Positions 39,511 to 42,861 of a stretch of DNA of 64,000 nt are shown piece after piece. How positions within the stretch are numbered: position 1 is the first letter of the stretch; each line of letters begins with the position of its first letter. Below the pieces are notes generated by a model. The model was not told where the DNA came from, made no database searches, and was given only the letters and a program-made list of their open reading frames with translations. A program made the position numbers and the translations under genes. Source of the stretch: a bacterium (GTDB lineage Bacteria > Pseudomonadota > Gammaproteobacteria > Pseudomonadales > Moraxellaceae); contig JAQSDB010000003.1 of assembly GCA_029945725.1 (NCBI GenBank), forward strand, positions 561,842 through 625,841. Reading direction: 5' to 3'.

Positions 39511-39569
39511 TCTTAACATTTGAGTTCAGCGGCGCGCTTTAGAGCGTCCGCTGGAACAATTTGTTATGC
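39511..39569 (-). other. Integron attC recombination site (attC-1)
   Basis: minus strand GCATAAC-AAATTG-TTCCAGCGGACGCTCTAAAGCGCGCCGCTGAACTCAAAT-GTTAAGA: R''/L''/L'/R' layout, imperfect palindrome with extrahelical base, matches canonical attC pattern. Confidence 0.8.
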
Positions 39570-39598
39570 AAAATATTTAACGACAGGTAAGTCCCTGC

Positions 39599-40183
39599 CT
39601 ACTCTATCTGATCGCTAAACGGCAATGATTCGATGTATTTTTGCATGAAAATAAAGTCTGGATTGCCGTCGGCATCAACAGGAAGATATATCTCTGACTC
39701 ACGCATTCGTTCAAGATGCCATTTTCGGCCATAGCTAAACCGATATTTTTCTCTTCGAATAAGTGTTGCTATAAATATAGCGATAGCTGGGGTAATTTTG
39801 AACTTTGGATAAAGTACATTCACGTCATCAGACGCACAAAATGCTTCTGGCTGATAGAACGCCTCAGCCACAGAGCCGTTGTAATTTACGGTTATAGTCC
39901 CCTTGGAATGCAATGCTGTTTGGCCAATAAAATGTGAAACACCATTATTTGACTCTATAGCCCCAATAAATGGCGTGGTGCCATCCGTCATATTGGCTTT
40001 GGTCAGTCTTTTTCCTTTTTTCAGATCAAACATTTCGCCCAGCCTAAACGGCTTCCATCCGGAAGATTTAGGAAACAAAGTCTTGCCAGTTTTTTGTGCA
40101 ACTCTTGATAATTTATATGTCGCTAATTCACGTACTGCATCTGAAAATGACGCTGCTTCAATTTCTGTGTAATCTGTTGTCAT
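39599..40183 (-). CDS. Specificity (TRD, HsdS-like) portion of a Type IIC/IIG-like RM protein; in frame with upstream ORF
   Basis: GWKPFRLGEMFDLKKGKRLTKANM...PFIGAIESNNGVSHFIG; frame stays open upstream to the TGA at 40283-40285. Confidence 0.8.
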   Translation of the reverse strand: MTTDYTEIEAASFSDAVRELATYKLSRVAQKTGKTLFPKSSGWKPFRLGEMFDLKKGKRLTKANMTDGTTPFIGAIESNNGVSHFIGQTALHSKGTITVNYNGSVAEAFYQPEAFCASDDVNVLYPKFKITPAIAIFIATLIRREKYRFSYGRKWHLERMRESEIYLPVDADGNPDFIFMQKYIESLPFSDQIE

Positions 40184-40282
40184 GTAAGCTTCTGCGCACC
40201 ATTCGTCCGCTGATGTAACCTTTTGAAGGACGCTTTCGCCAGCATGAACCTCACGATTTCTAAATGCATCGACCCAACGATC

Positions 40283-41998
40283 TCATATTTCCGGCCATGT
40301 TTCGTTCAAGTCAATACGACCTTTGTGCTTTGTTTTTACAAAGCCATCGTTCTTCCAGTACCCGAACCACGTTTTTCTATTCTCCGTAGCGTGTGGCTTA
40401 TGCGCAGTAAAAACCATAATACACGTTACCGTACCAACGGGATAAAACAGTTGCTCTGACATTGACATGACTGCTTCAAGCGTGTGCTCTTTGAGAATTT
40501 CAGCTCGCAATACATCCGAATTTAAAGCACAACCCATAGGGACAATTGCGATTCCTGTTCCTCCAACTTTCAAACAATCAAGCATGTGTTTTATGAACCG
40601 CAACTCATGCAAATCACTATCGCTTTGGCTGTATGGTGGATTGATCATTGCTACGTCGCAACCATGATTTTTTATTGCGACTGTAATGGCATCATCAAAA
40701 CAGCTACCTTGATACAAGTTGGCTTTTCCGTCGCCACGCAAAATCATATTGGATGCAGCTAGCGCAAACATATTTGGCTGCTGTTCAACGCCGACTAACC
40801 CCTCTTTTCGAATCTTGTTTCTTTCTGCATCTGTCGTTGAGCTTTTGAACATGCGATGCATTGCCGATATCAAGAAGCCGCCAGTTCCAGCGCAAATATC
40901 AAGTACTTTGCTGTCTTTATTAACGTTTGCCAATAGCGCAAAAAGCTCAGTGATATGCCGTGGTGTTAAGACGATACCAAGTGCTTTTTTATCGCCGCCC
41001 GTATATTTTAGGAACTCACCATAAAACTGACCCACTACATCAAAGTCGTGATAAACACTAATGAATGGCCACACCTTGCTATTGAGGCGATCTACTAGCT
41101 CATGTAACGGGCCTTTTGGATATGCCTTAGTTGCTTTACCCAGTTCGGGATGGACACCGATACTGGAATAAGGTTGAGTCATATTCGCTTTTTTTGCTTG
41201 AGGGATATCGGCAGCTTGAATCTCTTCTTGAATTACACGCATCCAATCTTTTTGTAACTGAGCAGGTGTTTGAACATCATATGACGCAACAAAAGCTTTA
41301 TTTCGCAGAGCTATCAATGTGCCACTAACCAAAAGCGGCTTTTCGCTTTCGGTTAATTTTGCGTGATCTCGCATAAATTCATGCAGATCAGCGGCAAAAT
41401 TCATCAGTTCGTCAAAGCGTAGCTTCTGAACCGCAGGATCGAATGTGGCGTTTTCTATGTAGTCTAGCCATGGAATAAAGCCATTCAGTACTGCGCCACC
41501 TTTCGCACGCAACTCTTTTGGCTTAATTCCACCTTTTGGCCACAAATAGGTAGATATCAGTGCGGATTGTTTAGTTTCGCCACTGACGGCTATTGCAATA
41601 ACATTGAACTTTCGTGCCAATGATTTTGCATAATGAAGTGCGCCGTCGATAGCATATCGCTGTGTCCTTTTCGATTTTGAGACGTCACTTTCATCGTAGA
41701 CTAGCCCATTCACAATACTTCCAACGGTAGAACTACCATGGTCATTTGTGTCTGCTTTGCACTCGATGATTACAAGGACATCTGGAGAACTTGGGGAGCT
41801 GATGATGAACTCAGGCGCGCCGGAACCGCCGCCACCAGACTTGCTGGCGGTTTTCATCAGTTGCCTGACATCTTCTATGTTGCTTTTCTGCTCTTCGACG
41901 GAGATGTCTGCCTTGGAATCATAAAACCCATGCTTCCGGAGTTCATTACGTACCACGTTTTCCGTCTTGCGTTCATTTTTCGCCATTACAAATACCAA
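40283..41998 (-). CDS. Restriction nuclease (PD-ExK) / N6-adenine methyltransferase portion of a Type IIC/IIG-like RM protein
   Basis: PDVLVIIECKAD nuclease motif; DICAGTGGFLISA (motif I) and NPPYSQSD (motif IV); terminates at TGA while the frame continues into the TRD. Confidence 0.85.
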   Translation of the reverse strand: MVFVMAKNERKTENVVRNELRKHGFYDSKADISVEEQKSNIEDVRQLMKTASKSGGGGSGAPEFIISSPSSPDVLVIIECKADTNDHGSSTVGSIVNGLVYDESDVSKSKRTQRYAIDGALHYAKSLARKFNVIAIAVSGETKQSALISTYLWPKGGIKPKELRAKGGAVLNGFIPWLDYIENATFDPAVQKLRFDELMNFAADLHEFMRDHAKLTESEKPLLVSGTLIALRNKAFVASYDVQTPAQLQKDWMRVIQEEIQAADIPQAKKANMTQPYSSIGVHPELGKATKAYPKGPLHELVDRLNSKVWPFISVYHDFDVVGQFYGEFLKYTGGDKKALGIVLTPRHITELFALLANVNKDSKVLDICAGTGGFLISAMHRMFKSSTTDAERNKIRKEGLVGVEQQPNMFALAASNMILRGDGKANLYQGSCFDDAITVAIKNHGCDVAMINPPYSQSDSDLHELRFIKHMLDCLKVGGTGIAIVPMGCALNSDVLRAEILKEHTLEAVMSMSEQLFYPVGTVTCIMVFTAHKPHATENRKTWFGYWKNDGFVKTKHKGRIDLNETWPEI

Positions 41999-42043
41999 TA
42001 AGAAATTGCATTATTTTCAGGAGTAAGCGTTTCGCCATACTGG

Positions 42044-42103
42044 GCATAATGTTGGAATTAAGGCCGCGGCTGTAAGCTGTCGGCCTTAAATGAGTGGTTA
42101 GGC
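42044..42103 (-). other. Integron attC recombination site (attC-2)
   Basis: minus strand GCCTAAC-CACTCA-TTTAAGGCCGACAGCTTACAGCCGCGGCCTTAATTCCAAC-ATTATGC; palindromic core with extrahelical base; R' degenerate (ATTATGC). Confidence 0.78.
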
Positions 42104-42112
42104 TCTGTGGAT

Positions 42113-42817
42113 TCATTTCCACATTGGCCACTTGCTTGATGTATATAAGGTTGCCAAAATAGCTAAAAATGGCGACACAATAATTAATATTTTTTCAAGA
42201 ATAGCCAGTATCTTTCTTTTCTGTATTTGCCTATTTCTAAAATCCAGTAGCAGCAGCCAAATTCGAAAAACATATAAACTAGTGCTGCCGACTGATATTG
42301 CGCTAGTTGCCGCGCAATACTTAAAGAATATACTAAAATATTTGTTTATTCTTTCTTCTGTTATTTTATATGGCTCAAGATCAAATCCGATAATTATATT
42401 ATCTTCGTCTGTCTTTGCTAGAGATGATTTATATGGATAAATAATAACCAATATTTTGCCATTTATTCCCTGAGTAAAGACTATGCTAGCTCCGGTCTCC
42501 ATGGCTTCGGAGACTTTGTATTGGCCTTTTTTATTGCGCGCATGTAGTACGCCAAGCCTTCTCAAGCCCGTAGAAATCTGCGCCTGATTTTGGAAATTTG
42601 ACTTATATATCCATGGTTTTCTGAAGCAGGGATGGCCTTCTCTTAAAATAGAGAGATAGAGATTTCCTAAATACCTCTTCTCTTTTTCCATGCTATCCAT
42701 TTCATGGAAGCAACACTTGAGGCGATGCTCAAAGTCAATCCACATTACTCTCCGAATAAAACCATCATTCTCCATGGCATGAAGTTTCTTTACTGCTTTA
42801 TACAATGCCGCTTTCAT
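42113..42817 (-). CDS. Hypothetical membrane protein (gene cassette ORF)
   Basis: About 234 aa, two C-terminal hydrophobic segments (FKYCAATSAISVGSTSLYVFRIWLLLL; ILIIVSPFLAILATLY); AT-rich; stop lies 10 bp from attC-2. Confidence 0.65.
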   Translation of the reverse strand: MKAALYKAVKKLHAMENDGFIRRVMWIDFEHRLKCCFHEMDSMEKEKRYLGNLYLSILREGHPCFRKPWIYKSNFQNQAQISTGLRRLGVLHARNKKGQYKVSEAMETGASIVFTQGINGKILVIIYPYKSSLAKTDEDNIIIGFDLEPYKITEERINKYFSIFFKYCAATSAISVGSTSLYVFRIWLLLLDFRNRQIQKRKILAILEKILIIVSPFLAILATLYTSSKWPMWK

Positions 42818-42854
42818 AAATATTACTTGTTTTTGGCGCTCGGCCGATTGAGGA

Positions 42855-42861
42855 GCCTAAC
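42855..42861 (-). other. Possible cassette boundary core site (GTTAGGC)
   Basis: minus strand CCTATTAACT-GTTAGGC located 38 bp upstream of the cassette ORF; no full attC palindrome upstream. Confidence 0.45.

What the first reader, a model, noticed from the sequence alone, without database searches (positions are those of the whole stretch)
39511..42861. Two integron gene cassettes (attC-bounded) with no integrase in the window
On the minus strand, attC-1 (39569-39511) reads GCATAAC-AAATTG-TTCCAGCGGACGC...GCGCGCCGCTGAACTCAAAT-GTTAAGA. attC-2 (42103-42044) reads GCCTAAC-CACTCA-TTTAAGGCCGAC...CGCGGCCTTAATTCCAAC-ATTATGC. Both have the canonical R''-L''-loop-L'-R' order, near-palindromic stems and an unpaired extrahelical base. 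Each follows a gene stop codon by about 10-30 bp in the same orientation as the gene, as in true cassettes. A further GTTAGGC core lies 38 bp upstream of the first ORF. No intI lies between the tRNA-Arg landmarks, so this may be a CALIN (attC cluster lacking an integrase) or an orphaned array fragment.
Basis: partly seen in the sequence, partly recalled or inferred. Interest (0 to 1): 0.8.

Follow-up and report, generated by a model that had tools for sequence, protein, structure and literature searches.

The report
Two stranded, decaying integron gene cassettes
Two gene cassettes of the kind that integrons capture and shuffle sit here with no shuffling enzyme beside them, inside a small island at a tRNA gene; such stranded cassettes are common in bacteria, but this genome's own integron and its relatives show unusually clearly where they may have come from.

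Summary
Confirmed. Both attC sites are real. A covariance model built only from attC sites of this genome's own integron, on other contigs, finds exactly these two sites in the 64 kb window (52.0 and 45.6 bits; E = 5e-12 and 3.5e-10). The stretch 42861-39511 (-) is two whole cassettes. Cassette 1 (811 bp) starts at GTTAGGC, the exact complement of its own R'' GCCTAAC. Cassette 2 (2533 bp) starts (A)TTATGC, matching its own R'' GCATAAC. No intI is in the window, but a full intI with an array lies elsewhere in the assembly. The cassettes lie in a 4.4 kb AT-rich island between tRNA-Arg(CCG) and a displaced 48-bp copy of the ancestral tRNA 3' end. The locus is decaying: attC-2 has lost the conserved G of GTT, and the second gene (a type IIG restriction-methylation fusion) has an internal stop. 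This is a CALIN, a known and common class. The context is more interesting: the genus carries many intI-less arrays, several beginning at true attI sites, and a congener has such an attI at this same tRNA-Arg. The window's own left edge only weakly resembles attI.

The parts
42855..42861 (-). Left core site GTTAGGC: start of cassette 1; crossover between G 42861 and T 42860. Preceded by CGCCTATTAACT, which weakly resembles the genus attI core (GCCTANTTAAC)
   Evidence: exact complement of attC-2 R''; attI-core score rank 3 of 288 GTTRRR sites, itself included; not hit by the attI model R3
42050..42860 (-). Cassette 1, 811 bp, 38% GC
   Evidence: boundaries by core-site complementarity
42113..42817 (-). 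Cassette 1 gene, 234 aa, protein family of unknown function (N-terminal helix, beta core, hydrophobic C-terminal helices)
   Evidence: six relatives of 232-252 aa, 40-50% identity; no Pfam, NCBIfam or PADLOC match; model pLDDT 69, no PDB fold match
42044..42103 (-). attC-2 (end of cassette 1), R'' GCCTAAC, R' ATTATGC (conserved G lost)
   Evidence: R1 52.0 bits, E 5.4e-12; 52 of 60 aligned positions identical to resident attC C8e
39517..42049 (-). Cassette 2, 2533 bp, 43% GC
   Evidence: starts TTATGC, complement of attC-1 R'' GCATAAC
40283..41998 (-). Cassette 2 gene, first part: type IIG restriction-methylation protein, 571 aa before an internal TGA (40285-40283)
   Evidence: PADLOC REase_MTase_IIG 304 bits, Pfam N6_Mtase; relatives read through this position with a sense codon
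39599..40183 (-). Cassette 2 gene, second part in the same frame: one target-recognition (S) domain, 194 aa from an internal ATG
   Evidence: Pfam Methylase_S 72.6 bits; full-length fusions of 794-797 aa exist in Paraburkholderia L071 and Sulfuritalea L073
39511..39569 (-). attC-1 (end of cassette 2), R'' GCATAAC, R' GTTAAGA
   Evidence: R1 45.6 bits, E 3.5e-10; bottom strand folds into the canonical paired form
39376..39423 (-). Displaced 48-bp tRNA-Arg 3' end, followed by a terminator-like hairpin; far end of the 4.4 kb island
   Evidence: 95.8% identical to the tRNA 3' end of congeners, against 90% to this genome's own intact tRNA; hairpin listed
43784..43860 (-). Intact tRNA-Arg (CCG), near end of the island; acceptor stem changed on both sides relative to congeners
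43228..43698 (+). DUF2726/DUF559-like gene, 156 aa, in the island but outside the cassettes
   Evidence: no close copy in the other eight genomes of the genus

Best explanation
A CALIN of two complete cassettes. An integron integrase of the lineage still present in this genome (or a now lost local one) recombined folded bottom-strand attC hairpins and placed an 811-bp and a 2533-bp cassette at one site, at or near an attI-like core (TTAACT|GTT), inside a small island that an element with a phage-type integrase had inserted at tRNA-Arg. The integrase beside the site is absent: either the cassettes were delivered in trans to a genomic (attG-type) target, or a local intI and most of its attI decayed. 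The locus is now close to a fossil: attC-2 lacks the conserved G of the crossover triplet and the restriction-methylation gene is interrupted. Shown: attC sites, cassette boundaries, island borders, resident intI and array, gene break. Inferred: IntI as the agent, the order of events, loss of mobility and of restriction-methylation function.
For: Only two model hits in the window, with strong E-values, from a model that did not see them; both match attC sites of the resident array in sequence and length; start/R'' complementarity for both cassettes; GC 38% and 43% against 59% for the window; complete intI of 485 bits on contig C8 with an array, and more of the same kind of array on small contigs C6 and C9; further orphan attC clusters on C2, C4 and C10; island with a displaced tRNA 3' end, whereas congener G008 has tRNA-Arg about 0.5 kb from the homologous flank with no island.
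Against: No genome with the empty site was found: the joined flanks match only this genome among 199 of the family, so insertion as such is not proven. The left flank is not a significant hit of the attI model. The TGA in cassette 2 could be an assembly error; no reads were available.
Confidence: 0.82

Rival explanations
1. Degraded integron at this very locus (a sub-case of the best explanation): an integron (intI-attI-array) once stood beside tRNA-Arg in the genus; intI and most of the array were lost, leaving two cassettes and a decayed attI core.
For: Congener G003 has, directly after the same tRNA-Arg, a clear attI and, on the contig holding the flank of the other side, an array of at least 10 attCs with no intI, in the same orientation. 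Several intI-less arrays in the genus begin at true attI sites, and two attIs in G007 still have 5' scraps of intI. The window's left flank shares GCCTA-TTAAC-GTTAGGC with attI, with two one-base shifts.
Against: The window flank is not hit by the attI model; no intI scrap in the island; no cassette shared with G003; the join between the two G003 contigs is inferred from synteny.
Confidence: 0.4
2. Off-target insertion (the other sub-case): cassettes were inserted by IntI in trans at a chromosomal attG-type site.
For: Precise left boundary with no attC or significant attI before it; a complete intI elsewhere in the genome; attG insertion is an established IntI activity (Loot et al. 2024, known here only as cited in PMC12444791 and PMC12901181).
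Against: The cassette 1 gene has no second copy in the genome and neither gene was seen in the array contigs read; no empty site found; that the cassettes entered after the island is assumed.
Confidence: 0.4
3. The cassettes arrived already joined, carried by the tRNA-Arg island (prophage or integrative element), and were never recombined in this cell.
For: They lie inside an island bounded by tRNA 3' ends; the same tRNA carries a filamentous-phage-like prophage in G019 and another island in G005; attC sites have been reported in phage genomes (PMC9892861).
Against: No phage gene or tyrosine integrase remains in the 4.4 kb; the attCs match the genus's own attC type.
Confidence: 0.15
4. Chance palindromes near gene ends.
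Against: E-values of 5e-12 and 3.5e-10; no other window hit up to E = 10; double start/R'' complementarity.
Confidence: 0.01

Closest known systems
CALIN (cluster of attC sites lacking an integron-integrase; IntegronFinder class, PMC9024848)
   Same: At least two attC sites, same orientation, no intI in the neighbourhood, few cassettes; proposed there to be degraded integrons
   Different: Nothing in kind; here a likely source integron is still in the genome and both cassette boundaries can be read
Non-ilvD CALINs of Xanthomonas (PMC12444791)
   Same: Short intI-less arrays at chromosomal loci away from the main integron, in about half of genomes
   Different: Here inside a tRNA-Arg island, and related arrays in the genus start at recognisable attI sites
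attG insertion of cassettes (Loot et al. 2024, as cited in PMC12444791 and PMC12901181)
   Same: Cassettes placed outside an integron by IntI at a site that is neither attC nor the main attI
   Different: Known from experiment; here inferred from boundaries only, and the site is somewhat attI-like
Type IIG restriction-methylation enzyme (PADLOC REase_MTase_IIG)
   Same: Restriction-methylase core plus a target-recognition domain in one frame
   Different: Interrupted by an internal TGA

Membership tests
CALIN | At least two attC sites above covariance-model threshold | tested here: met
   Own model R1: 52.0 and 45.6 bits. The IntegronFinder model itself was not available.
CALIN | Sites on one strand and close together | tested here: met
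   both (-), about 2.5 kb apart
CALIN | No intI nearby | tested here: met
   tblastn with resident IntI finds nothing significant in the window; the genome's only intI above the curated cut-off is on contig C8
Integron gene cassette | R'' of the cassette's attC complements the core at its own start | tested here: met
   GTTAGGC/GCCTAAC and (A)TTATGC/GCATAAC
attC site | R' = GTTRRRY | tested here: not met
   ATTATGC and GTTAAGA: both depart, attC-2 at the conserved G; the sites are read as decayed attC
attC site | Bottom strand folds into a hairpin with an extrahelical base | tested here: met
   z = -3.97 and -4.17; in attC-2 the R''/R' arm is not formed in the predicted fold
attI site at the left edge | Matches the genus attI profile | tested here: not met
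   no R3 hit in the window up to E = 10; core-only resemblance, rank 3 of 288
attG insertion | Empty site in a relative | tested here: inconclusive
   flanks not found outside this genome among 199 of the family
tRNA-targeted genomic island | Direct repeat of the tRNA 3' end at the far border | tested here: met
   48 bp at 39423-39376
tRNA-targeted genomic island | Integrase gene inside | tested here: not met
   no tyrosine recombinase among the island's genes; read as a relic
Type IIG restriction-methylation enzyme | Uninterrupted frame | tested here: not met
   internal TGA

The most novel reading that the evidence does not exclude
In this genus one integrase serves many dispersed attI platforms: attI sites without intI are scattered over the chromosome, each able to collect cassettes in trans, and the window's pair is a decayed satellite of this kind. 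Supporting context: the own genome has five attI-model matches and one intI; G004 has three attI-model matches and no intI found.
Probability: 0.2. Interest if true: 0.65.

Novelty: new member of a known kind. Interest (0 to 1): 0.4.

Why it matters
CALINs are usually seen without their source. Here the resident integrase and array, the individual cassette boundaries, the tRNA island and the relatives' intI-less but attI-headed arrays are all readable, so the open question of how CALINs arise (degraded integron or off-target insertion) could be tested in one genus.

Tried and rejected
Rfam: no attC family match; only the tRNA reached its gathering score. An attC or intI relic upstream of cassette 1: none. 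The left flank as a full attI: not significant. Empty site by joined flanks in 199 family genomes: no. Are relatives of the cassette genes also in cassettes? Of 80 loci with type IIG relatives only a Comamonas MAG (L108, three attCs before the gene) and an Ignavibacteria MAG (L088, one after) have attCs recognised by my models; two loci with relatives of the cassette 1 protein had none. My models are tuned to this genus's attC type, so other attC types may be missed. Fold of the cassette 1 protein: low confidence, no PDB match. The organism could not be named: close relatives of the flanking gene are unnamed environmental sequences.

Full report
The sites. I searched the assembly holding the window (3.34 Mb, 11 contigs) for an integron integrase and found one complete gene (TIGR02249, 485 bits, C8:654069-655010), followed by attI and a cassette array running off the contig end; more of the same kind of array is on contigs C6 (2260 bp) and C9 (2117 bp). 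Ten distinct attC sites from these contigs gave a covariance model, R1. In the window it hits only attC-2 (52.0 bits) and attC-1 (45.6 bits), with nothing else up to E = 10. In a filter-free scan of the island the third best stretch has 7.7 bits. Bottom-strand folding agrees. attC-2 is identical to resident site C8e at 52 of 60 aligned positions.

The cassettes. In a true cassette the R'' of its attC complements the core at its own start. Cassette 1 starts GTTAGGC (42861) and its R'' is GCCTAAC; cassette 2 starts ATTATGC and its R'' is GCATAAC. The stretch therefore contains two complete units of 811 and 2533 bp, with GC of 38% and 43% against 59% for the window. Cassette 1 encodes a 234-aa protein with six known relatives and no annotated family. 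Cassette 2 encodes a type IIG restriction-methylation fusion broken by an in-frame TGA; relatives have a sense codon there, and full-length fusions of 794-797 aa exist. Most of the relatives read instead end at about 640 aa, so one-gene fusions are the minority form.

Decay. attC-2's R' has lost the G of GTTRRRY and attC-1's R' departs at its last base. From general knowledge of IntI sites the GTT/AAC triplet is the part that matters most, so attC-2 is probably impaired; this is inference.

The place. The pair lies between tRNA-Arg(CCG), 43860-43784, and a 48-bp tRNA 3' end at 39423-39376 followed by a terminator-like hairpin. That remnant matches the tRNA of congeners better (95.8%) than this genome's own intact tRNA (90%), and the intact tRNA has changed on both sides of its acceptor stem. 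This is what insertion of an integrative element into the tRNA would leave. Congener G008 has tRNA-Arg about 0.5 kb from the homologous flanking region, with no island. The same tRNA carries a filamentous-phage-like prophage with its own integrase in G019 and another island in G005. The window's island has no integrase left.

How it came about. Left boundaries of first cassettes in several orphan arrays of this genome were found by the same complementarity test. I collected attI cores from intI loci in the genus. The window's left flank resembles the core (GCCTA-TTAAC-GTTAGGC with two one-base shifts; rank 3 of 288 GTTRRR sites, itself included), but a sequence model of attI (R3) does not hit it. 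In contrast the C2 array of this genome is hit (20.2 bits), and searches of the genus show clear attI sites without intI: C4:134154 in this genome (near-identical to the C8 attI; no intI in the 6.2 kb read), C6 and C1 in G004 (a genome with no intI found), C78 in G001, C2 in G002, and tRNA-Arg in G003. Two attIs in G007 still have scraps of the 5' part of intI. The flanks and scoring in the core comparison were chosen after looking at the sequences, so its rank is suggestive only. Both a degraded local integron and an off-target insertion fit; I give them equal weight.

Membership. It meets the definition of a CALIN (PMC9024848). CALINs are common: 2961 were counted in that survey, against 2760 complete integrons. 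It is a new member of a known kind. The caution that draft assemblies inflate CALIN counts by splitting integrons (PMC9024848) does not apply to this locus, which lies inside a 752-kb contig, but it may apply to the arrays at contig ends (C4, C6, C9, and C11/C14 of G003).

What is not shown. No empty site, no assay, no reads, no species name. Genome handles are anonymous; 'genus' and 'family' are the tool's GTDB groupings.

Noticed in passing
G000 C4:134154-134186 (L192): A second attI, near-identical to the one beside intI on C8, with no intI in the 6.2 kb read; the array would run off the contig end.
   Followed up: partly
G000 C11:481447-481482 and C11:58371-58396 (L196, L197): attI-like sites with no attC hit and no intI similarity in the 5.5-6 kb around them.
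   Followed up: partly
L057 (G003 C14 end) and L175 (G003 C11:1-13000): A congener has an attI directly after the same tRNA-Arg and, on the contig with the other flank, an array of at least 10 attCs without intI.
   Followed up: partly
window 43784-43860 and 39376-39423: The intact tRNA-Arg acceptor stem differs from congeners on both sides (GCGCTCG/CGAGCGC against GCGCCAG/CTGGCGC), while the displaced 3' remnant keeps the old sequence.
   Followed up: partly
L064 (G000 C10:60000-67000), about 3884-4494: A single attC follows what looks like a two-gene toxin-antitoxin pair, as for a lone cassette.
   Followed up: no
L058 4948-12147 (G019): Filamentous-phage-like prophage (integrase, Zot-like and replication-like ORFs, judged by eye) at the same tRNA-Arg.
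   Followed up: no
L108 246-2556: In a Comamonas MAG a type IIG relative directly follows three attCs, so restriction-methylation genes of this family probably travel as cassettes elsewhere too.
   Followed up: no
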